DNA of 64,000 nucleotides from the NCBI GenBank assembly GCA_027405735.1, contig JAPEHQ010000008.1, forward strand, positions 868,001-932,000. Reading direction: 5' to 3'. This document shows, piece after piece, positions 35,122 to 60,111 of this stretch (positions are counted from its first letter, which is position 1; every line of letters starts with the position of its first letter). The position numbers and the translations under genes are program-made. The notes beneath the pieces were generated by a model, which worked only from the letters and a program-made list of their open reading frames with translations, was not told the DNA's origin and did no database searches. The DNA is from Mucor racemosus. Lineage: Eukaryota > Mucoromycota > Mucoromycetes > Mucorales > Mucoraceae.

Positions 35122-35869
35122 AACTTTTTTCAATATCGCCACCCAATTGTATTTTTCCTGTAAATTCATGTATACATTAGTTCTCATAATTATTTAATAA
35201 TAAAGCTCCACGATATTGCTCTGCCATGTTTTTTTTTTCTTTTGTTTAAATTGATAACAATGAAAAAATATATTTCTAATCCGGAAATGCAACTCATTAT
35301 TTTGCGATTTGAGGCCTAGACAATTTGACTCGCAGGTAATTTTCGTGCGTATTTTCAAAATATAAATGTACATGCATTTTCCTACCTTAAGATGATGACA
35401 ATGCTTTATAAGCTGAACCGTAAATAAGTTATAAGCACATCTATAATTTTGAATTGCTAATTCAAAGGAGATCGGAATAGCTTCTTTATCAGAGTGATAC
35501 CATGGTAATGAGATTTTATATAAACAGTTTGCAACAAATACGGTATATGATAGCTGTTTCCAAATGATATATAAGCAGAAGTCTGTCAGACATTTAGATT
35601 GACAATTAATCTAGCCTTAATTCATTTTAGTAAAGCATTTTCAAGTGTAGTCGCAAAATTCCAGTATCAAGACGTTGATTGCGTAATGATGAAAATTGCA
35701 AGGTTTTTTACTTTTCAATAATTAATATCTCTGCCATTTTAGAAAATTATTAAGACAATTGTATACCATGTTAAAGATGCAATTAAGAAATCAATAATCA
35801 GTAATTGCATATTTTTGGCAAAAGTCTTCGGAATTTACAGCGTGCAATTTTGGATTCCTAGCCAAACTT

Positions 35870-38800
35870 TTTTTTCACTAACTCACAACAAAATAAAAAT
35901 GTATGCCAATGTACTTCAGATGTTCAACTTTAATCCAAAAACGAGTATCTAAAAATATCTTGCCTTTTGCAGTTGGTATTAATTTTTCAGTGCTAATGTT
36001 TCAAATTTTTACACGTATTTCACTACTAAAAAATGAAAAAATTGAGCCTTCATATCTCTACAAAAAATTAAGCTACTCTAACACTTTTTAATAATGAAAC
36101 TTACTTGTTTTAAAACGCTCTATAACATATTTTAGTATAAAAAAATTCTGAGCAATTTTATTTTTTTTCAGTTTTTTGACATTTTTGCAGTACATTTCAA
36201 AATATTCGTTAAATTGAGCGGTATCTTTTTGACATGTATTTCATTGACCTCGTTGAGCTCTCTTGGACCCAATTTAGTTTTCTTCAAAATATTGATTTTT
36301 CGTGGAGATATCGTCAAAAATGTGTGCAAAGAGATATCCTCCCTTCTACCTCCAAATTTCCTTTGTATACCCTCGTCCCAAATTCTGAATTTGAAAAAAA
36401 AATTGACAAAAATCTTGTTTTCTCTACGGCAAATGCAGCTAGAAGGTTTAGCAATAGATCGATCGATAGATAATTTTGCTGTGCATTATTTTCATTACTT
36501 AAGTTAGAAATATACTTATAAAAAGTAATGCGTATTTTCAAAAAACCTCCAAAATTTCAATTGCATTTTACGCAAAATTTTATGTGAAACATATTTTTGG
36601 ATTTAATATAGATGGATGCAGAATTTAAAACTGTACAGAAACCATTTAATACACTAGATCGACTTGCTTTGCAGTTCATGAACATTTAAACAATTTTGTT
36701 TTTTGATTCATTTTTCGTTCATTTTTTCAAATCATTTTTGGAACCCCGTTACTATTGCGTTTAAGCCGTGATAAGAACTATTATTTTAATTATCTCGACG
36801 AAAAAACAATATTTTTTGCTGAAACAAAAAATACAGAGTAGCTTAGAGTTGGATCTATCTTTTGAATGCAAAAAATCAATGCCTCAATTTAGATGCTCAA
36901 TTATTAATAATCAATATTAGGTCAATCTTGGTCAATTTTGATCAATGTCTAGCTAGTGCGCTTATATTCTGGTATTAATATTTTTATTTTCCGAGAAGTA
37001 TCAATGACCTATGGCGTGAATATACATGTTTCTTAAAGATTTTGATGTGATTTAATTCAATATTGGGCGAAAACGTTCGAAAACCATTTAAAAACCATCT
37101 GAAACCTACTTTTTACAACCGTAAAAAACCAATACCAAAAGCCCTGTCTCAGCAAATTTCAATCCTAATAACTTCCAACTTTACATGAGAGTAGGGACAC
37201 ATCTTTGACAAGCTGATCTCAAAGAGCAATATTCATAACCATAACCTACTGTGTGCTGGAAAAACCATCGCCAAAGAAGTGCACCTATAGCTTACTGCGC
37301 AAGTTTTTTGAAACAAAATTCTAATATGATCTCTATTGTAATAAGTACTATGATCTTGTAATAAGTTGAGCCTATTAAGGAAGAAGTACAAAAGGTGGAC
37401 GTTGTTGGTGTTACTAACTGTAGTTGACTATTACTTTGGTCAATAATACTTACTATGTATTAAATGTAATTAATATTGGACAAGTAATATTAAGTAATAG
37501 ATCGGTTGGGGTTGTGATAATAAGTTTATTTGATTTAAAATTATTAACAAAGGAAAGAAACAGAAGATATTTTCACTAATGTTCAATATCTGATTCAACA
37601 TTTACATATTTATATGGATTATCTAATAACTGAAACTAATTCATGCAATTATTGTTGAAACATCATGTAATGTGAATCATTACATCTATGAATACTGATT
37701 CAAGTAAGCTGCCGCTTTTTATGGATATAGATATTGCAGTAAATTACGATGTTATTTACTAAAATAAAAAAAATATAAAAATAAAAGCAGTAGAAATACA
37801 ATTATAATCAGCTAAAGTTTTTATTACAAAAGATTTCTGAAGAGTTAAAATAATTGAAAAGTATGAGGGTATTTATAGTGATTTAGAGAACTTGGATACC
37901 ATCAGACTTGACTGGATGTATATTTAGTAATCTTCCAGTTTTGAGTACATTGTTATTGATTTGATATTTTAAGGGGTAAATTGTATAGAGCATTGACCAT
38001 AAGGGATTGTATGTCAAGTGTGACAATATCGACCTTTTGGGAAATGGTTGTTTTTGTTTATTTCTGTTATATCTATTTTATGTAACCTTGATTTTTTAAG
38101 GGGTAGTTTTTATATGCTTGAATCTTATTTATATTGATAGTGCAACTACGATATAGATGAGTAGTTGACTAAATTGATATCTTTGTTTATTATCATTATT
38201 GATTTGGATAGAATCCTGTTTTGATATATATGTCATTTGTGTAATTGATTGCGCCGTGATCAAGGGTGCTATCATCTACACGACATGTATGGTTCAAAAA
38301 GGGTATTTCATATTTTTAGCATGCGTTTGTTATTGTGTTCAATTGAAACGTTTGTTTATTATCGTTGTTCACATTTCAAGTGGCATCATATTTTATGAGC
38401 GACACTTGAAATTTAGGTTGTTTTTATTTTATCAAGCGTTTTTAGTATGTAATTCCACTGCAGATATGAATAGGTACTACTAGTATTTCAGATGCCAGCT
38501 TTCATGGGTCATTATGCGCTTGGTAAGTTTGAGCAACAAGTTGGCTACATACTATTTATGCCTACTAAGATCAGCAAACTCATCAGTTCTCGACGAATAT
38601 GGATCCAAATGACCCCCCATTGCAATGACAGGCACTTTTAGTATTATTGATTAATATAATTGCAAAGGATTTAGCCGCCCCGAACTGCTGTGTAAATAGA
38701 TAATTGAAAACTCGTACGTGTTCAAACTATTTTGCATCATCAATTGTTTCAAGTATTCTTTGAAAGGTTTTATAAAATTAAATAATGATTCAAAATTGAA

Positions 38801-39232
38801 TTTTAAAGTTGTGCTTAATGCACAGTAAATGTAAGAAGAACATATCTTGATTTCATTAGCCAACAGTTATTTTTGAAGGAGTTTAGCACAAATTTCAAAA
38901 TGAAATCTCTCTTCCTCTGCCTAAAAAAATTAAAGCCACTGGAAAAATGCTTGTAATTAATGAATATTGATCCAAATGGGCTGCAAGTTTCAAAATGTAT
39001 ACTACAACAGATGTAGCAGTATCCAGAGCTACAATTTTATCATTTGATTGATTTACTGGTTACATCGTAAGAGTAAAACGTGCACTTTTTTCTAGTGGGA
39101 TTTGTTGCATAGTAGACCATTTCAAATTTAGAAATAGCGCTAAATCAATCAAAAACAGCATATATGGCAATGATAACTACTGAAATTTATAATTTATAAA
39201 TAAATATTCTCTTTTGTATAATCAAAATTGTA
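35870..39232 (+). repeat. Left arm of a large inverted repeat (dispersed repeat family, copy L)
   Basis: The sequence returns on the opposite strand at 46512 to about 50240. Pairing positions sum to 85744 for 37150-39232 and to 86114 for 36091-36550; the difference of about 370 is the hAT-like insertion in the right arm. Sampled stretches of the inner 2.6 kb are about 99 % identical (my count by eye). The outer 400 bp are clearly more diverged. The inner edge is sharp: shared AAAATTGTA at 39224-39232, then unlike sequence. The arm has no convincing coding capacity. Confidence 0.92.
37735..38462. mobile_element. 728-bp TIR element, copy in left arm
   Basis: The termini are TGCAGTAAATTAC and (other end, inverted) TGCAGTGGAATTAC. 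The 5-bp direct repeat GATAT lies at 37730-37734 and 38463-38467. Repeat copy A has the uninterrupted site (CCTATTCATATCTATATTC in the opposite sense), which shows this is an insertion. No transposase is visible. It is the same insertion event as the one in the right arm. Confidence 0.85.
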
Positions 39233-39250
39233 TTGCAATGTGCTCTACAT

Positions 39251-39282
<32 letters not shown>

Positions 39283-40923
39283 GGAAAAACGTCGCATTTC
39301 AAATATTGATGTAATAAATAGTGCTAATAAGTAAATAGATACCAGAAAGAACATCAGAAAATTATAAACCTTTGTTTCTTGAAGGACTTGCTTTATTGAA
39401 TGGTCAACAGTTGATGGCCAAGTAAATACTAGGCAATTCTATATATTGGCTTTATTTTTAATTTTTGAAATTATAAGTCGATTCAGAATTAAATGTGCTA
39501 TAAAACATTCAACTGATAAACGCTGGTATTTATCTGATTTGTTGTCAAATTTTGAAAACATTATTACTTGAGCATTTTTAAAACTATTGTCGATAAAAGG
39601 AACAATGCAGAAATGCATCTTATCGCTAATAAATATACTTTATTCAGCCCTATATTTGTGCAACTACATGATATAAAGTTTATCAATTGGTTGTAGAAAT
39701 GGTTCTATATGATTCTGTGTTCATGAAACCACCGAAAAGCCTCGAAAAATATCCGTTTGAATTTGCGAGTTTTCGAGTGTTTTCATAGAATAAATAGGTA
39801 TAAACTCTACTTTCACAATTATTTTGTTGAATTTATTCATTTGCACCCATTGTTCTGGCGATAAAGCATGCAATGAATCAAAGTTTACTTCCTGAATGAT
39901 ATTGAAGTGCTACAAACTGAGTTTGTAACGTTTCAATAAAGTGGATGTTCTCAAGGAAACAGGCGAAACTTGGCCCATCTTTTAGGAGTTTCATCAACCA
40001 AAACAATAAAAAAAAAATACTTCAGTATATTTAGGATGTCTACCAACAATATCATAAGTTTTTATAAGGGTTACTATCCTTCAAGCAAATGTAAAAACTC
40101 TCTGAATTTTGAGTTTTTGACTTTTAGATCCTTCCAAGCCTGTATTTCAAAAACTGCGTATTAGTAATGCAAAAATTATGATTTATGCTTTCAAACCTTG
40201 ATTGCGAATACCGAAATTTTAATTGATACACAAATATTGATGTTGGTGATATCATCAGGATTATATCTAACGTAAGAAAACCGTGTAAATAGGCAGCAAT
40301 TTTGGTGTTATCATGATTGTAAGATTTTACGCCATTTCATATGTTTGCCTCCAAATTTTCTCGTCTGCTTGATTGGAAAACAAATATTGCATAGCCTCTT
40401 TATACGTATTTTTTTTTTCAATTTGAAAAATTAAGTATCAATACTTGATTTGTATTACATAATCTTAAAAAAGCTAGTAGGATATTGGACAGGCATTTTA
40501 TGATCTCAACGTCATTAACTTTGTTTACTGTGTTGTAATTATCGTGCTATACTTCGTAATGTCGGGAAAACTTAATTTTCCGGTAAGATAAAAGTCTTTC
40601 CACCTCATTTTTATATATTCAAATGTGAATCAAAATGTTGAAAGACTTTCGATTTAAAGACATCAAGATATATTTTATGATTAGGGGCATTTTTTTCTAT
40701 TTTGATAAACCTTTTTGTGGCGAGAATCTACAGAAAACGATGTTGTTCATGATTACAAATTAAAGTGACAGTCAAAGTGTATTAGTAAAAGATCGCCGGG
40801 CTTTTTTTCCCCTCAATATGGACTCAATGATGCATGAATTGGTTATGGAAAGTATAAAAATGGATTGTTTTCTTGTACCATAATTTTAAAAAACCAAATC
40901 CTTTATCTTAAATAATAATAAAA
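39233..40923. other. Loop-side flank of left arm, no gene seen
   Basis: AT-rich DNA between the left arm and the aldo-keto reductase gene. It contains an uninterrupted T29 run at 39254-39282, just inside the arm edge. No supported gene. Confidence 0.5.
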
Positions 40924-42049
40924 ATGTCTGACCACAAGTACGTTACTTTGCAACCTTCCGGCGATAAGATTCCCCTCGTTGGATTTGGTACCGCAAGAAT
41001 CCCTGCTGCCGAGACAGAGGAAGTAATTTACAATGCCATTAAAACTGGTAATCGTTTGATTGATGGTGCTCTTCTTTATGCTAATGAGCCTGAAGTTGGT
41101 AAAGCTGTAAGAAAGGCTATTGCTGACGGAATTGTTAAACGTGAAGAACTTTTCAGTAAGTAAAATCAAATCTACAGGCATAATCTTGGCATTGATTTAA
41201 TTGGATTTTTTAGTCGTCGGAAAGCTCTGGAATAGTTTCCATGAAAAGAAGCATGTTAAACCTATCTTCCAAAAGACTCTTGATAATTATGGTTTGGACT
41301 ATATTGATCTTTACCTTATTCATTGTAAGTAAATCTTTGGTTAAATATGAAGAAGGATGGGGGATATCTGTTCTTTTTTTAATATTTGGGGATTTTTTAT
41401 TGATATTTTTGTGCAAATAATATTAGTCCCCTTGGCTACTGAATATGTTGATCCTGAAAAAGCTGCCGATTTTTTAAACCCCAACAAAGCGTCCAAGATT
41501 ATCAAGGCTCCTTTACAAGAAACATGGCGGGAGTTGGAAGATTTGGTAGACTCTGGTGTTGTTCGTAATATTGGTATCTCAAACTTTAACGTCCAATCCA
41601 TTCTTGATCTTCTTAGTTATGCTCGTATTCCTCCTAGCGTTCTCGAGATTGAACATCATCCTTATCTTCAACAAAGACGTCTGGTTAATTGGGCCAAATC
41701 TCAAGGTATCCAAGTCATTGCCTATGCATCATTTGGTAACGCTGTATTTGACAGATTACCTCCTGGAACAGAGCATTTGGAAAATTTGATGAAACATCCT
41801 GTGATTGTAAGCATTGCTGAAAAGCATAAGCGTGATGTAGGACAAATTCTTTTGGCTTGGGCTGTTCATTATGAAATTATCGTAATTCCCAAGACTGTCA
41901 AGGTTGAACGTATGAAGAGTAATCTTGATATTGACCATATTCAGTTGGATGATGATGATTTACAAAAGATTGCTAAATTGGAAGCAAATACTCGTTTTAA
42001 CGACATGTTTGTTAATACTTATGGTTTCGATCTCCCTCTCTTTACTTAA
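40924..42049 (+). CDS. Aldo-keto reductase, D-xylose reductase type
   Basis: Three exons (40924-41155, 41214-41324, 41427-42049) encode 321 residues, the usual length of AKR family 2 xylose reductases. The barrel begins [12 protein letters not shown]. The catalytic set is present as Asp in [12 protein letters not shown] (Asp and Tyr), Lys in [11 protein letters not shown] and His in DLYLIHFPLA. The cofactor region shows [23 protein letters not shown], then [16 protein letters not shown]. The usual IPKS is IPKT here, a mild change, so NADPH or dual use cannot be judged. It reduces aldose sugars or other aldehydes in the cytosol. The gene lies in the loop between the two inverted arms, with promoter about 1.7 kb from the left arm. 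The DPEKAADF insert fits xylose reductases. Confidence 0.9.
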
Positions 42050-42731
42050 TTTATTCTTCTTTTGTGTATGTATCATACCCACATTGAATATATAAATGCA
42101 TTTACATTCATATACTTTTTAACATCTATAATAATAAAATTCTGGTCAACACCGCCACACGGTGTACGGCTCGTACTGCCGCAGGCCTGTTTACTTGATT
42201 ATAAGAAGCTTTTCATCGTATTGTAGCTTCCTTTTTTTGGATCAAACTGTGTCCAAAAGACCAATCAATATTTTTCTATGCATATACTAATATTCTAAAA
42301 AAAAGAAAAAAAAAACTGCTATACTACATGCCAGTAAATTTAAAAAGTTTATTTATTATAAAAACGGTTAAGAAGCGCATCAAAAACAATTCTTGAAAGT
42401 GTCATTGAAAAACTCCTACAGCATTATTCACGTTTTTTCTTGCAATAGTTTTCAAAGAGATAATTTACCATGCAGATAGGTTATAACACTGAATCTTAAT
42501 ATTTATTGATGAAAACTTGATTTGGTAAAGCCGAGAATAAGCCCAAAAAACAACAATGCGCAGAATCTTAATGTGGAAAACCCGACATCCCCTTTGTAGG
42601 TACATAATTGCCCTGCTGATGCACTGTATACCAAATCTTAAAATTGAGCACACCATTTTTTTGGAGAACATATTTATTCTTTATTTCGTTTATCTATTTT
42701 CAATTTATATATTCATTTTACTCGAATAAAA
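42050..42731. other. Intergenic, no gene seen
   Basis: About 680 bp between the reductase and the SAP-kinase gene. A GC-richer patch at 42149-42190 stands out against the AT-rich background and can form short hairpins (CCGCCACACGG). No gene claimed. Confidence 0.4.
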
Positions 42732-44550
42732 ATGTTATTCCATACAATTCCAAAGCATGTTGATCAATCTCTCGAGGTAAATGTTGATAAATACAATAAA
42801 TGTTAATGTATTTTTCATAAATTATATTACATCGGTAGTATCTTGAATACGACCAGTTAAATGAAATGTCATTGGCAGATATCATTGATGTTTGTAGAGA
42901 AAGAAACCTCCCAACAGAGGGGAAGAAATCGCAGTTAATCAGTGATCTATTATTTTGGGTGAGGATTCCTAAATATTTGTGAGTATATACATGAAAACGC
43001 ATATTATTAACATGTAGATTATAGAGAGATCATACGAAACCTATACCAGCACCTTCGACACCTCGTCTTGGATCTTTGTCAGACCAACAGCAAGATATGA
43101 ACCCTTTTTTATTACAGCAGCATCAAGCTGAAAAAAACTTATTAAATTCAACTGAATTCTCGCATTTATTTTTGGATGATGATTCATCTACAAATCTAAG
43201 TATTCCATTTTCTGATTTGCTTTATGGTAAAAAGATTGGTAGTGGTGGATTTAAAGATTGCTACGAAGGTATTTTGTACATGGCGTATGTAATTATAGTT
43301 TATTGACATCAAATTTCTTTTTTGCATATTTACAGGCATTTATAAAGGAGTAAATATAATGTTATAATTTACAGTCGAAGATCTAAATAAAAACAAACCA
43401 TTAGGAAATAGTAGCTATTGGGGAACTTCGATTAACACATTTCAATGAAATCGACTTGGCAGAAGTGAAACATGAAATTAACGTATTAAAGTAAATACGC
43501 AGCATATGATGAGTTGATCATTCACTGATGAAAAAAAAAAAAAAAAAATAGACAGCTGCGACATGAAAATGTGATTAAATTTATAGGCGTTTGTACTCAC
43601 CCGAGTCATCTGTGCATTGTAACTGAAATCTGTGCGAAAGGTGACCTATTTGATGTTATTCGTAATTATCAAAGACCTAGTTTTGCACAGCAGGTTATGC
43701 ATATGTATGATATTGCGCTGGGTGTTTCTTATCTACATACTAGAAGGCCATCTATTATTCACCGAGTAAGAACTCATTATATATTATCGCATTATATGGA
43801 TACTATAACTGACTATTCATAGGATTTAAAATCAATGAATATATTGGTATATATAAAGCAATACATGATTGGAATTTACTTAATATTCATCATTATGTAG
43901 ATATCTAAAGATGATAGAGCAAAAATAAATGATTTTGGTCTGGCTCGTATTAGACCTAAAGCAAATACCTTAATGCATACACAATGTGGAACACCCAACT
44001 GGCAAGGTACGTATAATACCCAGTAATAAATCATAGCTTGATTTAACTTGAATTACATATGTAGCTCCTGAATTTTGGTCTTCTAATCCAAGTTACTCTG
44101 AAAAAGTAATACCAGATATAACATATTATTACACATATTATACCAATACATTCTTTATAATTTTTCACAGGTAGATGTATATGCATGCGGGTTGATCTTT
44201 TGGGAAATATTGACTTGGGGCATATATGGATATCCGTATCAAAGTAAATAAAACTGTAGTCAGTTCATGTGCCCGACATTTATGTTTTTTGTCAATACAT
44301 AGATCTAGCCGAACATGCTTTATATGCTGCTGTCAAGGACCATGATATTCGGCCACCAATATCAAAATTAACAAATTCATATCCAAGAAATCTTTTAGTC
44401 TTGATTATGGAAATGTGGGAAACTGATCCATCATTGGTAAATGCAAAAAGAAAACAAAGGTAGCTAAAGTATTTATAAACTTTTTTATTGTTATTATAGC
44501 GGCCTTCCATGAATCATGTAGTTGAACGATTATCTACATATTTGCTATAA
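42732..44550 (+). CDS. SAP-domain plus TKL-like kinase, WNK-like lysine placement; SAP exon frame-broken
   Basis: Twelve exons: 42732-42776, 42839-42957, 43025-43268, 43336-43349, 43405-43490, 43552-43765, 43823-43846, 43901-44006, 44065-44105, 44171-44243, 44303-44436, 44500-44550. Exon 2 encodes a SAP-type motif (LNEMSLADIIDVCRE, then NLPTEGKKSQLISDLLFW), but the halves lie in different frames: one base is missing near 42900. Exons 3-12 sum to 987 bases in frame. The kinase has the loop IGSGGFKDCYEG, EIVAIGELRL where Gly replaces the usual beta-3 Lys, HRDLKSMN, NDFGLARI, TPNWQAPEFW and DVYACGLIFWEILTWG. The Lys after GxGGF is where WNK kinases carry theirs. TKL-like by HRDLKSMN and APEFW. 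A product starting at the Met of DMNPFLLQQ would avoid the frame break. Confidence 0.72.
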
Positions 44551-44680
44551 ATATTATTACTAATAGCTTAAAAAAGCAGAGAATAAATGTATATTTTTAT
44601 TATTAAAATTTCTTTTCTTTTTTCCAATGATGATATGTATAAGGAGCACTAGTTTTGTATTCAATATTATTCAAAGTTCC

Positions 44681-45958
44681 CTAGCGTCTAATACTTGAAC
44701 TTCTGCGTCTGGAGAGTGATCTGCTATATGATCTTGATCTGCTACGTCTGATAGATCTACTTCTTCTGATAGGTGATCTGCTACGTCTGATAGATCTACT
44801 TCTTCTGATAGGTGATCTGCTACGTCTGATAGATCTACTTCTTCTGATGGGTGATCTGCTACGTCTGATAGATCTGCTACGTCTAATTGGTGATCTGCTA
44901 CGTCTGATGGGCGATCTACTTCTTCTGATAGGTGATCTGCTACGTCTTAAAGGTGATCTACTACGACTAAGACTACGACTAAGACTACGACTAAGGCTAC
45001 GACTAAGACTACGACTTAAACTTCTAGAGTAGCTTCTGCTACGAGAATAGCTACGTCCACGAGAATAACTACGTCGTCCGCGGGAATAAGATCGTTTTCT
45101 TCCACGAGAATAACTGCGACTGGGAGATCTTGAACGGGAATAAGAATAGCGTCTTCCACGGCGTACGGGTGATCTAGATGGTGAACGAGAATAACGTCTG
45201 CCTCTGTCTCTACCGCCTCTATAGCGATCTCCACGGCGATTTAATGGTGGAGGTGGACCACGATTGTTGATTTTTCTGAAAGGAGGAGGAGAATAACGAG
45301 CTTCAAAATATACAATATAACCAAATAAACAAATTGTTCCATTGAATTGACAAACATTCATAACTTACCTCTACGTGGAGAGGGTGATCTTTCACGATGT
45401 TTAGGAGCTACAACGCAAACAATTCGCTTACCATCCAATTGTGCCTATTGTTAAATGGTGTAAGATTTTGCATTGAATATGCTTGAAAAATTAATTATTC
45501 AAATTGCTTACATTATCCATATAGCTGATGGCCTTATCAGCATCTTCCTGTGTCTCAAAATCAATGTATGCTTTTCCTTTATTTGTTTTCACTATGTGTT
45601 GCAGTATAATTTAGCCTCGATATATCGTCATGCCATATAAAGTCAAAGGAAATTTTACTTACGAAGCTTATTGATGGGGAATTCAAGAGAACTGATTTTG
45701 CCAAATTCACTGAATATTTCTCTTACATGATCCTCTTTGACATTTCGCGTCAAATTGGTGACTAAAATAGAGTGAAAATGTTCTGGGCTACCTGAACGAG
45801 AGCGACTACGACGTAAAGATGAACGCGAGCGACTTTTTGCTAAGCGTGGAGAGGGTGATCTTGAATGAGGAGATCTAGGTGAAGCCCTTTTTCAAAATAT
45901 TAGAATGAAGCTATTGATTTTTTGTTTGTTTTTTTCTGTGGGTGTTCAAGACTCACAT
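44681..45958 (-). CDS. RNPS1-like SR protein (exon-junction/ASAP type)
   Basis: Five exons (45958-45957, 45886-45663, 45591-45512, 45444-45369, 45300-44681) sum to 1002 bases, 333 residues. The first exon gives only AT of the start codon; the G comes after a 70-bp intron. A short RS leader (SRSPSPRLAKSRSRSSLRR) precedes one RRM: ILVTNLTRNVKEDHVREIF, SEFGKISSLEFPINKL, GKAYIDFETQEDADKAISYM, QLDGKRIVCVVAPK. RNPS1 has the same LTRNV start and a basic proline-rich segment after the RRM (ARYSPPPFRK here). The C-terminal 170 residues are Arg/Ser repeats built on a 39-bp DNA unit. RNPS1 joins the exon junction and ASAP complexes. Other RS/RRM proteins are possible. Convergent with the kinase, 130 bp between stops. 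Confidence 0.75.
44736..44960 (-). repeat. Coding 39-bp tandem repeat in the RS domain
   Basis: Three near-identical 39-bp units (44736-44774, 44775-44813, 44814-44852) are followed by decayed units to about 44960. Each encodes a 13-residue RS unit of the form IRRSRSPIRRSRS. Further 5', shorter SRSLSRSL repeats continue to about 45020. Confidence 0.85.
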
Positions 45959-47281
45959 TTTATGAATTTGTTTTTGACTTTTTCGTAAAAAAGCGTTCAG
46001 TTTATTAGAAAAACTCTTGAGAAAGTCTATAAGAATCTCGTACAAACACGCCTAATGTGACGTGAAATTGACAAAGATTAACGCAAATTGCTTGATAACA
46101 GAGTCACCGGAAAAGTGCTCGCATAAATGTCACAATTGCAACTGTAATTTGTTGGAAACCAAGCATATGGTGTGCTTTATAACCTCATCTTCTTGGTTAG
46201 TTTGACGACCAGAATTCTGTGCATATTCATCGATACGCAAGTTCAACTTGCTTTGTATGATAGAAGCGTTAGTTTAATTTCAGGTATTAGCCCCCAATGA
46301 TACCTATTAAGAAGACATCAATGTCTGGTAAAATTAGATTCTGACTATAATGTTTCCTTTAATTCTTCTCAAAGGCTCAACTTTTGAGATTTTTTCACGA
46401 AAATACAACTACAATTGCAAATAATGCCCTGTTCTAAAATTTTTACGCGCAGTTGTTGGATTCGATATCGGATAGTATCCAAAGCTTCTAATGTAAAACA
46501 CATTTCATCTCTACAATTTTGATTATACAAAAGAGAATATTTATTTATAAATTATAAATTTCAGTAGTTATCATTGCCATATATGCTGTTTTTGATTGAT
46601 TTAGCGCTATTTCTAAATTTGAAATGGTCTACTATGCAACAAATCCCACTAGAAAAAAGTGCACGTTTTACTCTTACGATGTAACCAGTAAATCAATCAA
46701 ATGATAAAATTGTAGCTCTGGATACTGCTACATCTGTTGTAGTATACATTTTGAAACTTGCAGCCCATTTGGATCAATATTCATTAATTACAAGCATTTT
46801 TCCAGTGGCTTTAATTTTTTTAGGCAGAGGAAGAGAGATTTCATTTTGAAATTTGTGCTAAACTCCTTCAAAAATAACTGTTGGCTAATGAAATCAAGAT
46901 ATGTTCTTCTTACATTTACTGTGCATTAAGCACAACTTTAAAATTCAATTTTGAATCATTATTTAATTTTATAAAACCTTTCAAAGAATACTTGAAACAA
47001 TTGATGATGCAAAATAGTTTGAACACGTACGAGTTTTCAATTATCTATTTACACAGCAGTTCGGGGCGGCTAAATCCTTTGCAATTATATTAATCAATAA
47101 TACTAAAAGTGCCTGTCATTGCAATGGGGGGTCATTTGGATCCATATTCGTCGAGAACTGATGAGTTTGCTGATCTTAGTAGGCATAAATAGTATGTAGC
47201 CAACTTGTTGCTCAAACTTACCAAGCGCATAATGACCCATGAAAGCTGGCATCTGAAATACTAGTAGTACCTATTCATATC

Positions 47282-48009
47282 TGCAGTGGAATTACATACT
47301 AAAAACGCTTGATAAAATAAAAACAACCTAAATTTCAAGTGTCGCTCATAAAATATGATGCCACTTGAAATGTGAACAACGATAATAAACAAACGTTTCA
47401 ATTGAACACAATAACAAACGCATGCTAAAAATATGAAATACCCTTTTTGAACCATACATGTCGTGTAGATGATAGCACCCTTGATCACGGCGCAATCAAT
47501 TACACAAATGACATATATATCAAAACAGGATTCTATCCAAATCAATAATGATAATAAACAAAGATATCAATTTAGTCAACTACTCATCTATATCGTAGTT
47601 GCACTATCAATATAAATAAGATTCAAGCATATAAAAACTACCCCTTAAAAAATCAAGGTTACATAAAATAGATATAACAGAAATAAACAAAAACAACCAT
47701 TTCCCAAAAGGTCGATATTGTCACACTTGACATACAATCCCTTATGGTCAATGCTCTATACAATTTACCCCTTAAAATATCAAATCAATAACAATGTACT
47801 CAAAACTGGAAGATTACTAAATATACATCCAGTCAAGTCTGATGGTATCCAAGTTCTCTAAATCACTATAAATACCCTCATACTTTTCAATTATTTTAAC
47901 TCTTCAGAAATCTTTTGTAATAAAAACTTTAGCTGATTATAATTGTATTTCTACTGCTTTTATTTTTATATTTTTTTTATTTTAGTAAATAACATCGTAA
48001 TTTACTGCA
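47282..48009. mobile_element. 728-bp TIR element, copy in right arm
   Basis: Starts TGCAGTGGAATTACATAC and ends GTAATTTACTGCA; direct repeat ATATC at 47277-47281 and 48010-48014. Counterpart of the element at 37735-38462, inverted with the arm. No open frame resembles a transposase. Confidence 0.86.
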
Positions 48010-48598
48010 ATATCTATATCCATAAAAAGCGGCAGCTTACTTGAATCAGTATTCATAGATGTAATGATTCACATTACATGATGTTTCAACAATAATTGCA
48101 TGAATTAGTTTCAGTTATTAGATAATCCATATAAATATGTAAATGTTGAATCAGATATTGAACATTAGTGAAAATATCTTCTGTTTCTTTCCTTTGTTAA
48201 TAATTTTAAATCAAATAAACTTATTATCACAACCCCAACCGATCTATTACTTAATATTACTTGTCCAATATTAATTACATTTAATACATAGTAAGTATTA
48301 TTGACCAAAGTAATAGTCAACTACAGTTAGTAACACCAACAACGTCCACCTTTTGTACTTCTTCCTTAATAGGCTCAACTTATTACAAGATCATAGTACT
48401 TATTACAATAGAGATCATATTAGAATTTTGTTTCAAAAAACTTGCGCAGTAAGCTATAGGTGCACTTCTTTGGCGATGGTTTTTCCAGCACACAGTAGGT
48501 TATGGTTATGAATATTGCTCTTTGAGATCAGCTTGTCAAAGATGTGTCCCTACTCTCATGTAAAGTTGGAAGTTATTAGGATCGAAATTCGCTGAGAT

Positions 48599-48961
48599 TA
48601 GGAATGGGCTTCGATTCGAGTTTGAATCGAGTTTTAACGGAAACGGCCATTCGATTCGAGTTGGAAAACGGCCCGTTCTTTTGTAACCCAGATAAAAAAC
48701 GGGGTGGGAGCAAGTATTGGTTTGCCTTAAGGAGGCTGTTAATAGCAACATTGTCAAGTTAATATGGGATTATGAATTGATAATAGCATATTTGACAGTT
48801 TCACAACTTGAAGTATTTTTTCAATCCTGTTTTCGAGCTTAGCTAACAAAAAAAGAAAAGAAGAAACTCGAATACCCTCATTCGAGTTTGCATAAAAAAC
48901 GGCCCGTTAAAGCAGTCAAACTCGGTTAACCGTAATACGATGCGTTGTTTGTGAAATCCTA
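48599..48961. mobile_element. hAT-like MITE (363 bp) present only in the right arm
   Basis: The 8-bp direct repeat GCTGAGAT lies at 48591-48598 and 48962-48969. The insert starts TAGGAATGG and ends GAAATCCTA (inverse TAGGATTTC). The left arm has the empty site (GCTGAGAC equivalent near 37150). The insert carries GATTCGAG and CGGCCCGTT pairs. Size plus one target copy (371 bp) explains the coordinate offset between the arms. Confidence 0.88.
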
Positions 48962-50300
48962 GCTGAGATAGAGCTTTTGTTATTGGTTCTTTACGGTTGT
49001 AAAAAGTAGGTTTCAGATGGTTTTTAAATGGTTTTCGAACGTTTTCGCCCAATATTGAATTAAATCACATCAAAATCTTTAAGAAACATGTATATTCACG
49101 CCATAGGTCATTGATGCTTCTCGGAAAATGAAAATATTAATACCAGAATATAAGCGCACTAGCTAGACATTGATCAAATTGACCAAGATTGACCTAATAT
49201 TGATTATTAATAATTGAGCATCTAAATTGAGGCATTGATTTTTTGCATTCAAAAGATAGATCCAACTCTAAGCTACTCTGTATTTTTTGTTTCAGCAAAA
49301 AATATTGTTTTTTCGTCGAGATAATTAAAATAATAGTTCTTATCACGGCTTAAACGCAATAGTAACGGGGTTCCAAAAATGATTTGAAAAAATGAACGAA
49401 AAATGAATCAAAAAACAAAATTGTTTAAATGTTCATGAACTGCAAAGCAAGTCGATCTAGTGTATTAAATGGTTTCTGTACAGTTTTAAATTCTGCATCC
49501 ATCTATATTAAATCCAGAAATATGTTTCACATAAAATTTTGCGTAAAATGCAATTGAAATTTTGGAGGTTTTTTGAAAATACGCATTACTTTTTATAAGT
49601 ATATTTCTAACTTAAGTAATGAAAATAATGCACAGCAAAATTATCTATCGATCGATCTATTGCTAAACCTTCTAGCTGCATTTGCTGTAGAGAAAACAAG
49701 ATTTTTGTCAATTTTTTTTTCAAATTCAGAATTTGGGACGAGGGTATACAAAGGAAATTTGGAGGTAGAAGGGAAAATATCTCTTTGCACACATTTTTGA
49801 CGATATCTCCACGAAAAATCAATATTTTGAAGAAAACTAAATTGGTTCCGAGAGAGCTCAACGAGATCAATGAGATGCATGTTGAAAAAGATACCGCTCA
49901 ATTTAACGAATATTTTGAAATGTACTGCAAAAATGTCAAAAAACTGAAAAAAAATAAAATTGCTCAGAATTTTTTTATACTAAAATATGTTATAGAGTGC
50001 TTTAAAACAAGTAAGTTTCATTATTAGAAAGTGTTAGAGTAGCTTAATTTTTTGTAGAGATATGAAGGCTCAATTTTTTCATTTTTTAGTAGTGAAATAC
50101 GTGTAAAAATTTGAAACATTAGTACTAAAAAATTAATATTAACTGTAAAATATAGGATGTTTTTGGATACTCGTTTTTGGATTAAAGTTGGACATCTCAG
50201 GTACATTGGTATATCATTTTTTCTTCGTGTTGTTTAGTGGAAAAAAAATTAGAGCAGAGATGAAAAATAAGGCACAGTTTTTAGGCGGAAAGCTACAGAC

Positions 50301-51043
50301 TTTACCTGTTTTTGAGTCTTTGGTGAGGTACAAAGTAGACTTAGAATTAGATAATGTAATCCGAATAGTTTATATCTATTGAGTAGTGTCTAAGATGTAT
50401 CCTCAAAAGTGATTCGTCGTATGAGAAAACTTATAGAAAAGAGGGCACATTTTGACTATGAAGATTGAAAACGATGAAATTTTTTGATTTTTTTTAAAAA
50501 TTCAAATTGAATATCAAAATACATTTTCACTTATGAAGCGTTTCTTCCAAAAGTACGACAGCAAGACAAATAGGTCGTAAACCATAAAACTTAACGAAAC
50601 TGTCGATTTTCGAGGATATTAAACAGCCAATTTTGAAGCCAATTCCATTTCTAACTCATATTGAAATGTAATTCTTATAAATAGTCTTTTAAACCAAGAC
50701 CTAGAAGCTCTTGGTTCTTTCTTTTACTATTAGCTTTTCTAGTAATAGAGCCTACGTTCTCCGTGATAAATGTTACTAGTCTTTATTATTATTCTTTCTA
50801 TAAATAAGATTTTATGTATCCATAAACTCTCAAAAACAAAAAAAGATATAGTTTTACTTTTTGTTTTATTGTTTAATTAGAAAAAAAAAAGCAATTAGTA
50901 GATATAGATTATGAAGTGTCATTGTTTGGTTTATATATTAAAAATATTATATATATATATATACAGCATAATAATTAATTAATAGATATTGTTTAATTGT
51001 GGAGTTTGGATGAGATCCGGTGTTTTCAACATTGTATGATGGT
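50301..51043. other. Spacer between copy R and the second palindrome
   Basis: AT-rich DNA including a (TA)n stretch near 50950-50964. No gene seen. Weak similarity to the copy D edge extends to about 50400. Confidence 0.4.
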
Positions 51044-53104
51044 AGCTTATAGTTTATAAATTTTATTACTATATACACATTTTATTCACAGGATTTTTAT
51101 GTATAGCAGCTGGAAAGCTGGTAAACCATTTTGAAACATTTTTTTTCTTGATATAAAATGTGTACTAAATGCTTGGCGGCTTTTTTACGTTCTCTTTCTT
51201 GATTATTTTGGTTTTAATTTTGACGGAAAAAGGATATAAAATAATATTCAAAGTTTCCAAAACGTGAATGCTTTATTTTTTTTTGCGGATAACTGTAATG
51301 TTGCAATAAATATGAAACCTTCTTGCTGAGCATTTAATCAAGTGTGAAATTTGCTTGGACTAGTTTAGAGCTCAAGCCATTGAACTTGGTTATGGATTTT
51401 AATGTTTTTGACATATACACTATGAACTAACAGCTACCTCTAACTTTGTAAGCCCAAAGTTACAAGCTCATAGATAAGGTAGTGAATACTGTAGTAGTAA
51501 AAATAGTAGTAAAATTTTGGAATCAGTACTCGCTTTATTCCTAAATATTGGAATATAGATTTTATGACCAATCTGTTTAAATGGAAAAAGACATAGAAAT
51601 ATTGTTACCTCATATTAGTATTCAGTTTGAGATAAGCCAAATAAAAACGACGCTTGCTTCACGTATCTACTATCTTAAAATATAAGCTCTTACTGTAGAA
51701 CATGTATATTACTATTTAGTCATATTTATAAACTACATAAAAACAGCACAAGTAAAAAGAAGGCTTTTATTTATTTCATTAATGTGAACTCAATTTAGTT
51801 CTCAGAAAAACGCAAAATTCCCTTTTTCTGATTAACAGGAAAAATCACGAGAAGGTATGAGCTCGCTAATCCCAAAAAAATGGAAAAGCTACGCTATCTG
51901 CTCCATACTTTTTATATTTTTTTGTAGTGTTTTACATTGCTCATATCAACTGTGATTTCTTCCATGAAGTCTTCCATAGGCTTTTGCTCGATCTGATCTT
52001 TAAATATTCAAAATGAACTGGGTTGTTCAGTCTCCCGAAATCAACTTCATAGTTTTCGACTTCCATTTCACATTTTGCTCGTAGTAAAGGTCCAGTTTCT
52101 GGATTGTATTTTATGTGCTCCAGTACTCCATCCATTACGATCTAATAAACAAAACAGGCAATATTTGTTATCATAGAAACATATATTTTTCTACCAGAAA
52201 AACCGTTGTCTGTCATATCATACATTCATTAAAAAAATTGCAAAAGCGAGCCCGTAGAGCGACGCCGTAATTGAACATAGCAAGATTGAACGGCTGCTAA
52301 GTCTCTTATACTATATATTATGCTATGGTATATCTAAGTTTTAAATAAAAAAGCGTTTCTTTTTTTAACTTTTCTTATATTTAACCATGTATGGTCTGAA
52401 AATTCAGTTTTTATAGCGGACATTTTTCGGGACTCATTTTATCCTTACCAACACTCATGATTTTGATCAAAAAACAGAAAAATCAAATTTTGATACCAAA
52501 ATCAACATTCAAATATACTACAATGTGAGAGACAATTGTAGCCATAGTTAATGCACATTTTATAAAAGCTTAATATTAAATGTTAAGTAATGAAACTTTG
52601 TACTTTTGCCCCAAAAACGGATTTTTGGTTAAAGGATTTTCATGTAATATTTTGTAATAAAAATGTTTGTTATTTTTTATTGAGCAAATAGAGCGCTAAA
52701 TTCTCTATATATGTATATTTTTTGTTTTTATAATTGGTAGTATAATTAACTCTAGATTTGCAAAAACAGAAAAAAAAATTTAAAAAATGCCAAAATTGAT
52801 GATCTGGACAAGGATAATTTTCTAAATTAATATTCCGCTTATAAGCCTTGTAAGTCTTAAAAATAAGAGATTTTATAATACTTGATAATTTTTTCAAGAA
52901 TTTGCGATGCTGTACCCACTTGATTCAAGCTTATTACTGTAAATCTTTATACATGTTAATATTGTGTGGTAATTTTTTTGATGATAATATAGTTTTGCTT
53001 TATAATTATTACGTTAGAGGTAATTTATATTGAATTTTAGTCTTACCTCTCCAATATCATAAACATAAACATGGCCATCACTGGAATCTATTATTACTGC
53101 CTTT
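51044..53104. repeat. Second palindrome, arm B1 (2061 bp)
   Basis: Positions in B1 and B2 sum to 107711 at every point checked, so the arms are collinear without indels. The outer edge is at 51044/56667 and the inner edge at 53104/54607. Two reading frames of 64 and 75 codons are identical in both arms, so the arms are nearly or fully identical. The spacer is 1502 bp. Confidence 0.93.
51900..52135 (-). pseudogene. Unrecognised coding remnant with a frame break, copy in B1
   Basis: A frame reading VMDGVLEHIKYNPETGPLLR to VHFEYLK continues sensibly only after a shift of one base, as DQIEQKPMEDFMEEITVD. Composition before and after the shift (acidic, charged) is protein-like. It follows an acceptor-like TTTATTAG. 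I do not recognise the family. The same break is present in B2. Confidence 0.4.
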
Positions 53105-53299
53105 CTACCCTCTTTGTCCCAAGCCAATTTATTCAATGCTTTACCAGAACCAACTGAAGTACTTACAAATGGTTCCTCGGCATTTGAATTCAAATTCCAT
53201 AAATTAAATTGACTGGTTCTATCTACAGTAGTATCAAACGTATCATCATCAGCCCGCCTTATTATGATATATGTCTGATTCAATTCTGATATATCGAGA
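53047..53299 (-). pseudogene. Dynein intermediate chain, isolated C-terminal exon
   Basis: The exon reads LDISELNQTYIIIRRADDD, then QFNLWNLNSNAEEP, then GKALNKLAWDKEGRKAVIID and SSDGHVYVYDIGE, followed by a GTAAGA donor. It matches the last WD40 blades of cytoplasmic dynein intermediate chain (in human, LDLWNLN, ALNRVRWTHSGREIAVGD, IVIYDVGE). Earlier exons (WD40 blades, LC8-binding region) are absent in the 1.3 kb upstream, which instead holds a MITE. The last 58 bases lie within arm B1 and are therefore repeated in B2. It appears to be a relic at a rearrangement junction, although the exon itself is open. Confidence 0.75.
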
Positions 53300-54261: not shown

Positions 54262-54606
54262 CCTAGATAACAGGAACCAGTTACTGAACAGATAAGATTT
54301 GCTACATCTGTCAAAGATCTTCTATATAATATGGAATGCTGTAATTCGGAGGATAGTTCAATGTCAATCTAAAATAAGAAGCACCCCATTGTCATTGTTA
54401 TAAGCTATTATAAAAAGCTTGATTTTTTAATAATACAGCAATAATATAAAAAACAAGATGATACTAATAGCATATGGTGAGTATTTAACATCTAAGTAAG
54501 TTTGATAAAGTATGCTATTAAACCCTTTTAGAAATCCTGAGGCAAACACAATATCTTGGTCCTGTGATTCCTATCCATCAAAATGTTGCAATTTCCACCA
54601 CACTAA

Positions 54607-56667
54607 AAAGGCAGTAATAATAGATTCCAGTGATGGCCATGTTTATGTTTATGATATTGGAGAGGTAAGACTAAAATTCAATATAAATTACCTCTAACGT
54701 AATAATTATAAAGCAAAACTATATTATCATCAAAAAAATTACCACACAATATTAACATGTATAAAGATTTACAGTAATAAGCTTGAATCAAGTGGGTACA
54801 GCATCGCAAATTCTTGAAAAAATTATCAAGTATTATAAAATCTCTTATTTTTAAGACTTACAAGGCTTATAAGCGGAATATTAATTTAGAAAATTATCCT
54901 TGTCCAGATCATCAATTTTGGCATTTTTTAAATTTTTTTTTCTGTTTTTGCAAATCTAGAGTTAATTATACTACCAATTATAAAAACAAAAAATATACAT
55001 ATATAGAGAATTTAGCGCTCTATTTGCTCAATAAAAAATAACAAACATTTTTATTACAAAATATTACATGAAAATCCTTTAACCAAAAATCCGTTTTTGG
55101 GGCAAAAGTACAAAGTTTCATTACTTAACATTTAATATTAAGCTTTTATAAAATGTGCATTAACTATGGCTACAATTGTCTCTCACATTGTAGTATATTT
55201 GAATGTTGATTTTGGTATCAAAATTTGATTTTTCTGTTTTTTGATCAAAATCATGAGTGTTGGTAAGGATAAAATGAGTCCCGAAAAATGTCCGCTATAA
55301 AAACTGAATTTTCAGACCATACATGGTTAAATATAAGAAAAGTTAAAAAAAGAAACGCTTTTTTATTTAAAACTTAGATATACCATAGCATAATATATAG
55401 TATAAGAGACTTAGCAGCCGTTCAATCTTGCTATGTTCAATTACGGCGTCGCTCTACGGGCTCGCTTTTGCAATTTTTTTAATGAATGTATGATATGACA
55501 GACAACGGTTTTTCTGGTAGAAAAATATATGTTTCTATGATAACAAATATTGCCTGTTTTGTTTATTAGATCGTAATGGATGGAGTACTGGAGCACATAA
55601 AATACAATCCAGAAACTGGACCTTTACTACGAGCAAAATGTGAAATGGAAGTCGAAAACTATGAAGTTGATTTCGGGAGACTGAACAACCCAGTTCATTT
55701 TGAATATTTAAAGATCAGATCGAGCAAAAGCCTATGGAAGACTTCATGGAAGAAATCACAGTTGATATGAGCAATGTAAAACACTACAAAAAAATATAAA
55801 AAGTATGGAGCAGATAGCGTAGCTTTTCCATTTTTTTGGGATTAGCGAGCTCATACCTTCTCGTGATTTTTCCTGTTAATCAGAAAAAGGGAATTTTGCG
55901 TTTTTCTGAGAACTAAATTGAGTTCACATTAATGAAATAAATAAAAGCCTTCTTTTTACTTGTGCTGTTTTTATGTAGTTTATAAATATGACTAAATAGT
56001 AATATACATGTTCTACAGTAAGAGCTTATATTTTAAGATAGTAGATACGTGAAGCAAGCGTCGTTTTTATTTGGCTTATCTCAAACTGAATACTAATATG
56101 AGGTAACAATATTTCTATGTCTTTTTCCATTTAAACAGATTGGTCATAAAATCTATATTCCAATATTTAGGAATAAAGCGAGTACTGATTCCAAAATTTT
56201 ACTACTATTTTTACTACTACAGTATTCACTACCTTATCTATGAGCTTGTAACTTTGGGCTTACAAAGTTAGAGGTAGCTGTTAGTTCATAGTGTATATGT
56301 CAAAAACATTAAAATCCATAACCAAGTTCAATGGCTTGAGCTCTAAACTAGTCCAAGCAAATTTCACACTTGATTAAATGCTCAGCAAGAAGGTTTCATA
56401 TTTATTGCAACATTACAGTTATCCGCAAAAAAAAATAAAGCATTCACGTTTTGGAAACTTTGAATATTATTTTATATCCTTTTTCCGTCAAAATTAAAAC
56501 CAAAATAATCAAGAAAGAGAACGTAAAAAAGCCGCCAAGCATTTAGTACACATTTTATATCAAGAAAAAAAATGTTTCAAAATGGTTTACCAGCTTTCCA
56601 GCTGCTATACATAAAAATCCTGTGAATAAAATGTGTATATAGTAATAAAATTTATAAACTATAAGCT
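54607..56667. repeat. Second palindrome, arm B2 (2061 bp)
   Basis: Reverse complement of 51044-53104. It includes 58 bp of the dynein exon (54607-54664) with its donor. Outer end ACTATAAGC meets copy D directly at 56667. Inner flank differs from that of B1 after four shared bases. Confidence 0.93.
55576..55811 (+). pseudogene. Unrecognised coding remnant with a frame break, copy in B2
   Basis: Mirror copy of the remnant at 51900-52135, identical and with the same one-base frame break after VHFEYLK. The frame break must have existed before the inverted duplication, or have been copied by conversion. Confidence 0.4.
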
Positions 56668-58890: not shown

Positions 58891-60111
58891 TCCATAAAAT
58901 TTAATTTTGCTCGAGCAGATCTTTACAAAAAAAAAAAAATATCAAAATCCATTTTAACTTGAGGAGAGTAACTTTTTCCGAATGTATCAGAGTAATTTCA
59001 GCTATAAAATATAACAAAACAAACCGTTTGGCTTCTACAAAAGAAAATATAAAAAACTGTTTTTTACTATTAAATGTTCTTAAATGGAACAATTCAATCA
59101 CAAAGGTTTAATCGCAGTATCAGAAGTACGCCAAGAAAATACATTAAGAATTGTATCGACATGTAAATACATTTTTTTACAGCAAATTTATACTTTCAAA
59201 GCTCTAAAATGCTCAAATAAAATAGCATTCTGCTTAATCATAACGCAAGTAAAAATATTATAGTAGTTTCTATATATTTAGCAATCATTGCAGAGCTAAG
59301 TTTTCTATAAAAAAAAAAAGAAATCTTTGAAAAGCATCCGCACGCTGGGCCGTGAATTTGAGCTTCTTTTACAAAACCCATCATATGTTGTTATTATCGC
59401 GGTTCATTCATCAAACCAGGGAGCACACAGAAGCTCTTTTTATATTTCGTTTATAAAATCTTTAATACGACGATATATACTTTTCAAATCTGAATATAGC
59501 AAAAATAAAGATATCTCAAATTCCACATGTCTATGAATAGGATCGTCGTGTCTAAAATGGCCTCATTTTTCAGATTTATAATTTGCCTACAAATCCAGGC
59601 TCTTTTATGTCATTAATATCTACGTAATGGTAGCTCACTGAGTGAAACCCGGAACTTCTATTGTAAAAGCTTATTATATTTATACTTTTCTATGAACGAT
59701 GCATTTTGAATTTCTTTCCTGACCATGCTTTCATTTTCTAGCTACTGACACGCATGTGTTATATCAATGTATGTATATATTATACTTTCTGTATTTCTCA
59801 TTTCATGCTATATAATCAAAACTCGATTTTTTTGAGATTAAATTTAAATGACAGCTTACACAAAATCTCTTGCTTTGGGCATTTTGATTCAAATAGAAAG
59901 AAAATAAATCATCACCATCAGGGGTGAAACAAACTCAACAAAGCAATGAAAGCCGAGAAGCATGAAGAATTTAGTTGTAAAATTTAATTTTTAATTAGAA
60001 AAAAAAAAAAAAAAAGAATAAATGCGATATAAAAAAATCTCATCAAGAGAGGATGCATTATGCGAAATGAATTGAAAATGCTTAATATATTTTTGTAAAT
60101 GAAATGCTTGA
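58891..60111. other. Intergenic, no gene seen
   Basis: AT-rich DNA between copy D and the Whi3-like gene, with an A-run at 60000-60015 near the 3' end of that gene. No supported coding frame. Confidence 0.45.

What the first reader, a model, noticed from the sequence alone, without database searches (positions are those of the whole stretch)
35870..50300. Large inverted repeat whose loop holds three genes
Two arms of about 3.4-3.8 kb in opposite orientation flank 7.3 kb with an aldo-keto reductase, a SAP-kinase and an RNPS1-like gene. The inner 2.6 kb of the arms are about 99 % alike, far more than other family copies in this window (A, D, E). This is either a recent inverted segmental duplication, a composite element carrying host genes, or arms kept alike by gene conversion. 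Inverted arms this close can flip the loop or produce hairpin RNA for the RNA-silencing machinery of Mucoromycota.
Basis: partly seen in the sequence, partly recalled or inferred. Interest (0 to 1): 0.75.

Follow-up and report, generated by a model that had tools for sequence, protein, structure and literature searches.

The report
Inverted repeats kept identical by copying
In a Mucor-like fungus, two old copies of a non-coding repeat face each other around three ordinary genes and were recently made identical over two kilobases, most likely because the cell copied one onto the other; similar identical facing pairs occur at other places looked at in this genome.

Summary
The inverted repeat is real, with the stated junctions: 37147-39232 against 48597-46512 is 99.90 % identical, both mismatches lie in the first 15 bases, and 2071 bases are identical. 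The outer 1.3 kb is 96.3 %, down to 78 % at its outermost end. The arms are not a mobile composite but two copies of an old dispersed repeat ("R", 79-87 % between copies) holding a solo LTR and small inserts. The loop holds an aldo-keto reductase, a SAP-domain kinase and an RNPS1-like gene.

The picture recurs. Of nine nearby inverted repeat pairs measured, seven (three on C8; C1, C6, C12, C20) carry a 1.3-2.7 kb tract with 0-1 substitutions. In five the tract ends inside homologous but diverged sequence, on C20 at both ends. None of six direct pairs shows this.

Best reading: recent ectopic gene conversion between closely spaced inverted copies, partly by copying that ran past the homology (inverted duplication). 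It works like Y-chromosome palindromes, C. elegans inverted repeats and Candida tropicalis centromere repeats, but on ordinary transposon debris. Assembly artefact is unlikely, not excluded; most pairs came from a biased search.

The parts
35837..39849 (+). Left R copy (near-identical to the right copy only in its middle). R homology runs past the identical tract into the loop, to 39697 by independent copies
   Evidence: R profile matches 35837-37355 and 38462-39849 (this copy is a reference row of that profile). Independent: other genomic copies match query positions equal to 39532-39697
46491..50480 (-). Right R copy; runs about 230 bp further out than the left copy, stops about 21 bp past the identical tract
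   Evidence: R profile 50480-48962, 48603-48367, 47282-46491
37162..39232 (+). Left half of the identical tract, 2071 bp without mismatch
46512..48582 (-). Right half of the identical tract
35868..37161 (+). Outer left arm, 96.3 % to 50248-48952; 27 of 50 differing columns lie in 35867-35992
37735..38462 (+). Solo LTR (728 bp, TG..CA) with 5-bp target duplication GATAT (37730-37734, 38463-38467); same insertion in the other arm at 47282-48009
47282..48009 (-). Same solo LTR in right arm
48599..48961 (+). 363-bp insert in right arm only, 8-bp target duplication GCTGAGAT, ends TAGGAAT / ATCCTA (hAT-like by recalled rule, not tested); lies immediately outside the identical tract
   Evidence: sequence; absence from left arm and copies elsewhere
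40912..42046 (+). Loop gene 1: aldo-keto reductase (xylose reductase / dihydromethyltrisporate dehydrogenase relatives), exon frames
   Evidence: PF00248 E 5.6e-29 and 2.4e-4; best named relatives Mucor ambiguus, Parasitella
42839..44460 (+). Loop gene 2: SAP-domain protein kinase, exon frames (frames 43025-43303 and 44260-44460 gave no Pfam hit)
   Evidence: PF02037 E 2.5e-07; PF07714 E 3e-14
44681..45891 (-). Loop gene 3: RRM plus RS-rich protein (RNPS1-like; name recalled)
   Evidence: PF00076 E 2.3e-06; RS-rich frame, whose only Pfam hit is a sub-threshold match, probably low complexity
51044..53107 (+). Second inverted pair IR2, left arm; its first 1.1 kb matched only the partner in the genome search
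54604..56667 (-). IR2 right arm; 1 mismatch in 2064 bp, at the third base from the inner end
56657..58898 (-). Third R copy (E): 91-99 % to both arms in the stretch matching 35972-36614, 66-82 % beyond

Best explanation
Two (with E, three) old, differently truncated copies of the dispersed repeat R lie within 23 kb. The two inverted ones have been homogenised by ectopic gene conversion in several rounds. An older conversion covered about 36.4-37.15 kb (now about 99 %), patches in about 35.97-36.5 kb were shared among all three copies, and the latest copied at least 2071 bp, including a solo LTR, from one arm to the other. That last tract stops next to a 363-bp heterology on the outside and close to the end of R homology on the inside. 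The left arm may be the donor at the inner end, because R runs on across its boundary. At other loci the same repair process, started in inverted homology, seems to have run past the homology and been closed without homology, giving an inverted duplication (IR0, C1, C12, perhaps IR2). Shown: identity steps, shared inserts, tract ends in homologous sequence at five pairs, excess of inverted over direct pairs in the sample. Inferred: gene conversion as the process, donor direction, timing, and break repair within one chromatid or between sisters as the trigger.
For: Identity along IR1 per 100 columns: 78, 89, 97, 96, 95, 99, 100, 99, 100, 100, 99, 98, 97, then 98 and nineteen blocks of 100; 0/2071 inside vs 41/1280 outside, Fisher p 5e-18. 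E is 91-99 % like both arms from 35972 to 36614 and 66-82 % beyond, which simple duplication does not give. The C20 pair has 73 %, then 1316 bases without substitution, then 82 %, within R. C1, C12 and IR0 drop from 100 % to 61-70 % at the outer end; for C1 and IR0 the R profile independently covers both flanks. Among the 40 candidates scored per search only the partner is near-identical: next best 87 % for R, 91 % for the IR2 arm. Orientation: pairs of at least 1 kb and gap under 15 kb, 7 of 9 inverted vs 0 of 6 direct are homogenised, Fisher p 0.007 (pairs; test).
Against: The inner end of IR1 is weak: about 21 bp of R-like sequence lies beyond it on the right (score 4, shuffle maximum 5 in one run and 3 in another). 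IR2 has no homology at its outer ends (z 0.6 and -1.0), and 1.1 kb of its arms matched nothing else, so it must be a duplication. The outer-flank alignments are modest: z 6.2 (C1), 4.0 (IR0), 3.0 (C12, but 0.4 over 300 bp), and the identity of their aligned columns is about that of shuffles. C20 has no homology beyond its 73 % stretch (z 1.0). Four of the seven pairs came from family searches that favour near-identical pairs; in the 124 kb read without that bias the contrast is 3 of 4 inverted vs 0 of 4 direct, p 0.14, and some copies enter more than one pair. Conversion patches also join direct copies (right arm and E), so orientation is not an absolute rule. The near-perfect identity is what an over-correcting assembly might also give.
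Confidence: 0.64

Rival explanations
1. One recent inverted duplication by template switching or break-induced synthesis made the inner arms; the R copies only supplied the starting homology, and no recurrent conversion is involved.
For: IR2 arms hold 1.1 kb that matched nothing else. Inner ends of IR0, IR2, C1 and C12 show no homology beyond the tract (score 0), and the tracts of C1 and C12 run 474 and 110 bp beyond the R profile match.
Against: In IR1 the outer 0.7 kb is about 99 % while the last 0.1 kb is 78 %, and E shares a third pattern; C20 is bounded by diverged R on both sides. One event does not give this. For IR1 a mixture remains possible.
Confidence: 0.21
2. Assembly or library artefact: over-correction of reads between inverted arms, or inverted chimeras of whole-genome amplification.
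For: Six pairs together have 1 substitution in 11,993 bases of tract once the diverged ends are left off (tracts; sum), which is suspiciously perfect. Amplification chimeras are mostly inverted and under 10 kb (PMC1855051, abstract and passages).
Against: Sequence beyond the tract differs between the two arms at both ends of each pair aligned; tract ends fall in register inside 61-82 % similar sequence at C1, C12, C20 and IR0; the arms of IR1 differ by a 363-bp insert with its own target duplication and by 3.7 % outside the tract; direct copies at similar distance were not homogenised; contigs reach 7.1 Mb.
Confidence: 0.13
3. Composite or fold-back transposon that picked up three host genes.
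For: Inverted arms around genes; R is dispersed and present in many copies.
Against: Arm ends are not R ends; the 601-bp loop piece searched has one full match in the genome. A target duplication around the whole was not tested systematically.
Confidence: 0.02

Closest known systems
Primate Y-chromosome palindromes (e.g. P6; PMC3723533, abstract and passages seen)
   Same: Inverted arms above 99.9 % alike through arm-to-arm gene conversion; tracts of about 2 kb (mean 2068 bp there); crossover would only invert the loop
   Different: Those are palindromes of the male-specific region of one chromosome; here they are 1.3-2.7 kb tracts in diverged dispersed repeats on several contigs of a fungus
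C. elegans long inverted repeats (PMC1803023, abstract and passages seen)
   Same: Nearly perfect arms (2207 bp, 99.7 % at one locus) with a short spacer; arms more alike within a species than between species; gene conversion proposed
   Different: There they involve paralogous gene pairs followed across species; here no other species could be compared, and the arms are mainly repeat debris
Homogenised inverted repeats of Candida tropicalis centromeres (PMC7292649, abstract and passages seen)
   Same: Fungal inverted repeats, 3-4 kb arms, homogenised
   Different: [quoted passage not shown] here the loop has three genes and the pairs differ from locus to locus

Membership tests
Gene-conversion-homogenised inverted repeat (palindrome with spacer) | Arms far more alike than the family at large | tested here: met
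   99.9-100 % vs at most 87 % for any other of the 40 scored copies of R
Gene-conversion-homogenised inverted repeat (palindrome with spacer) | Identity changes abruptly inside homologous sequence (tract ends) | tested here: met
   IR1 outer side, IR0, C1, C12, C20; not met at the inner ends of IR0, C1, C12 and at either end of IR2
Gene-conversion-homogenised inverted repeat (palindrome with spacer) | Both arms older than their divergence (present in relatives) | not testable with these tools
   No relative genome held; age inferred only from 78.5 % identity at the outer end
Simple segmental duplication | Uniform divergence along the arm | tested here: not met
   0/2071 vs 41/1280, p 5e-18
Composite / fold-back transposon | Arms end at element ends | tested here: not met
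   R extends beyond the tract
Composite / fold-back transposon | Whole unit mobile, with target duplication and further copies | tested here: inconclusive
   601-bp loop piece has one full match; target duplication around the whole not tested systematically
Homogenised-inverted-repeat centromere | Gene-free CENP-A core, alike between chromosomes | tested here: not met
   Three genes in the loop; loop piece single-copy. CENP-A binding not testable
Hairpin-RNA / siRNA source locus | Transcription across the arms and small RNAs | not testable with these tools
   No RNA data

The most novel reading that the evidence does not exclude
Throughout this Mucor-like genome, any two repeat copies of more than about 1 kb that face each other within several kilobases are quickly made identical, while copies in direct orientation are not. 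A standing, orientation-dependent conversion process would then turn transposon debris into perfect long inverted repeats (naively about 24 per Mb from 3 in 124 kb), each a potential hairpin-RNA source and inversion hotspot.
Probability: 0.38. Interest if true: 0.72.

Novelty: new variant of a known kind. Interest (0 to 1): 0.5.

Why it matters
Near-perfect long inverted repeats are usually regarded as rare and unstable (so PMC1803023). If a fungal genome makes them routinely out of unrelated repeat copies, it offers a natural system for measuring conversion between inverted repeats, loop inversion and break repair, and may supply double-stranded RNA to the RNA-silencing machinery of Mucoromycota (inference). 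It also warns that identity between repeat copies there does not date their insertion: the solo LTR in both arms would be counted twice.

Tried and rejected
Long terminal repeats as the arms: rejected; the 728-bp unit is a solo LTR inside R, with its own target duplication. R as the terminal inverted repeat of one large element: judged unlikely; pairs occur with R facing either way (window and C20 one way, C1 and C12 the other). Two insertions from one young source copy: judged unlikely; no other copy above 87 % for R or 91 % for the IR2 arm among the 40 candidates scored in each search (2545 and 3338 first-look candidates, so not exhaustive). Structured RNA in the window: none at Rfam gathering scores. 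A strict alignment of the flanks with free end gaps gave scores within or near the shuffles and the script stopped with an error; it was repeated with milder scoring. R was not searched against protein families; its longest frames in the arms are 132 aa or less.

Rows dropped before the orientation count: pairs under 1 kb, inverted and direct (inverted ones within single loci: 537 bp 87.9 % with a 440-bp gap, 424 bp 93.2 %, 468 bp 81.6 %, 221 bp 95.5 %, 178 bp 92.7 %, and 637 bp 79.3 % cut by the end of the locus; none above 95.5 %), and LTR pairs (94.7, 95.3, 98.1 %), since LTR copies are alike genome-wide. Pairs under 15 kb seen by position only and not measured because the genome machine stayed busy: inverted S pairs on C1, C13 and C25 and the direct S pair 428037/441888 on C6; just beyond 15 kb, C5 (inverted) and C25 399166/416646 (direct).

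Literature: searches for Mucoromycota, Mucor or Mucorales with inverted repeats and gene conversion, long inverted repeats with fungal genome and palindrome (no paper), palindromes and gene conversion in fungi, conversion of inverted transposable elements in fungi, arm-to-arm conversion and inverted duplication mechanisms. Judged by titles and the starts of abstracts, plus passages of PMC2699053, none listed reports this pattern in a Mucoromycota genome. Only open-licence PMC papers are held.
Full report
What was checked. The window lies at C8:868001-932000 of a 53.2-Mb, 54-contig genome. The closest named relatives of the loop's aldo-keto reductase are from Mucor ambiguus (80 %) and Parasitella (77 %); proteins without an organism name reach 92 %. 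Self-comparison confirms the inverted repeat: 37147-39232 against 48597-46512 with 2 mismatches in 2086 bp, and 35868-37161 against 50248-48952 at 96.3 %. Both mismatches sit at 37154 and 37161, so 2071 bp are identical. A second pair, 51044-53107 / 54604-56667 (IR2), has 1 mismatch in 2064 bp, at the third base from its inner end.

Anatomy of the arms. Both arms are copies of a dispersed repeat, here called R, with no frame above 132 aa in the arms. A search of the genome with the outer part scored 40 copies, of which 38 besides the two arms are 79-87 % alike to the query (3338 first-look candidates, so the count is a lower bound). A profile of R from 11 other copies plus the window reference gives 35837-37355 and 38462-39849 for the left copy and 50480 down to 46491 for the right copy. 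The two copies are thus truncated differently, and the left copy runs on past 39232 into the loop; other genomic copies match there as far as 39697. Inside R, both arms carry the same 728-bp solo LTR with target duplication GATAT. Most full-length relatives scored are 97-100 % alike, and four pairs stand about 6 kb apart in the same orientation, as LTRs of a young element would. The right arm alone carries a 363-bp insert with an 8-bp target duplication (48599-48961; sequence), immediately outside the identical tract.

The loop. A 601-bp piece of the loop has one full match in the genome and weak 69-84 % pieces on C1. Pfam finds Aldo_ket_red, SAP, protein kinase and RRM; the RS-rich frame has only a sub-threshold hit. 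They look like ordinary host genes.

History written in the arms. In 107-bp blocks from the outside the arms are 78.5, 96.3, 97.2, 94.4, 98.1, 99.1, 99.1, 100, 100, 100, 98.1 and 96.3 % alike, then identical for 2071 bp. The third copy, E, in direct orientation to the right arm, is 93-99 % alike to both arms between 35972 and 36507, 91-92 % in the next block, and 66-82 % beyond 36614. In 35865-36344, of 38 substitutions between the arms, the right arm agrees with E at 34 and the left at 4; in 36345-37149 the right agrees at 2 and the left at 6. Such patches are the mark of gene conversion among neighbours. Uniform divergence along the arm is rejected: 0 of 2071 against 41 of 1280, p 5e-18.

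The same thing elsewhere. Sixty kb upstream were read in addition. In these 124 kb there are three pairs above 99.9 % (IR0 at -48394..-46093 / -45329..-43028 in window coordinates, IR1, IR2), all inverted, with spacers of 0.8, 7.3 and 1.5 kb; the most alike direct pair of at least 300 bp is an LTR pair at 94.65 %. Inverted R pairs on C1 (99.67 %), C12 (99.82 %) and C20 (96.99 %), and an inverted pair of a second repeat, S, on C6 (99.4 %), were compared directly. The mismatches are bunched at the ends: with those left off, C1 has none in 2672 bp (one indel), C12 none in 1577, C20 none in 1316 (one indel), IR0 one in 2296. C6 has 13 in its first 300 bp and then one, plus one indel, in 2266 bp; that tract is cut by the ends of the fetched loci. 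On C20 the tract lies between stretches of 73 % and 82 % within R; on C1, C12 and IR0 the outer end drops to 61-70 %. The alignment of those outer flanks beats shuffles by z 6.2 (C1), 4.0 (IR0) and 3.0 (C12, but 0.4 over 300 bp), by score, not by identity of aligned columns; IR2 (0.6) and the sequence beyond the C20 stretch (1.0) do not. For C1 and IR0 the R profile covers both flanks independently. Inner ends of IR0, IR2, C1, C12 and C20 show no homology beyond the aligned part, and IR1 only a doubtful 21 bp. The direct R pair on C11 is 97.3 % with 30 mismatches spread along it.

Orientation. Counting pairs of at least 1 kb with a gap under 15 kb, 7 of 9 inverted and 0 of 6 direct pairs carry such a tract (p 0.007); in the 124 kb alone it is 3 of 4 and 0 of 4 (p 0.14) (pairs). 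The two inverted exceptions have gaps of 9.3 and 9.9 kb; the homogenised C6 pair has 10.7 kb between its S matches, though its tract reaches further inward. The inverted pairs under 0.65 kb seen within single loci are not homogenised. Pairs taken from family searches are biased to near-identical partners, and some copies enter more than one pair, so the contrast, not the frequency, should be read from them, and its p-value is only a guide.

Mechanism. The simplest account is repair copying between inverted homologues within one chromatid or between sisters. Where homology flanks the break on both sides, the result is a closed conversion tract (C20, IR1). Where it exists on one side only, copying runs on into neighbouring sequence and is closed by end joining, leaving an inverted duplication whose outer end lies in homology and whose inner end does not (IR0, C1, C12). 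IR2, with 1.1 kb of sequence in its arms that matched nothing else and no outer homology, is a duplication of unknown start. Direct neighbours may escape notice because crossover or annealing between them deletes the sequence between. This paragraph is inference.

Limits. No relative genome, reads or RNA data were available; the genome machine gave no answer from then on, so several further S pairs known by position stayed unmeasured. An assembly that over-corrects inverted arms is the main danger and needs the raw reads. On checking, confidence was lowered by two points and the novel case likewise, because the flank statistics for C12 and the C6 distance are weaker than first written.

Noticed in passing
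52146-53262 and its copies (L026-L043; IR0 arms): A high-copy repeat (2545 first-look candidates; scored copies 85-91 % alike) contains a piece of a dynein intermediate-chain gene. The window ORF 53346-53014 matches dynein intermediate chain 2 at 8e-10. It looks like a transposon that captured a host gene fragment and spread it.
   Followed up: partly
51044-53107 / 54604-56667: Second near-perfect inverted pair (IR2), spacer 1.5 kb with a solo LTR (53538-54261, target duplication CCTAG); its outer right end abuts the truncated R copy E.
   Followed up: partly
L055 1606-6972 (C8:819606-824972): Third near-perfect inverted pair (IR0), 2302-bp arms, 0.76-kb spacer containing a 535-bp dispersed repeat that ends within a base of the arm.
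   Followed up: partly
C1:4598632/4604684, C9:618833/624878, C13:1146727/1152776, C17:610914/616951: 728-bp LTR copies about 6 kb apart in the same orientation at 99 %: perhaps young LTR retrotransposons.
   Followed up: no
44716-44976: Imperfect tandem repeat coding the RS/SPIRRSRS stretch of the RNPS1-like gene.
   Followed up: no
37337-37683 and the matching stretch of the right arm (about 48061-48407): About 348-bp insert in both arms, absent from most R copies compared but present in L052 at another place in R (78.5 %): perhaps another small mobile element.
   Followed up: no
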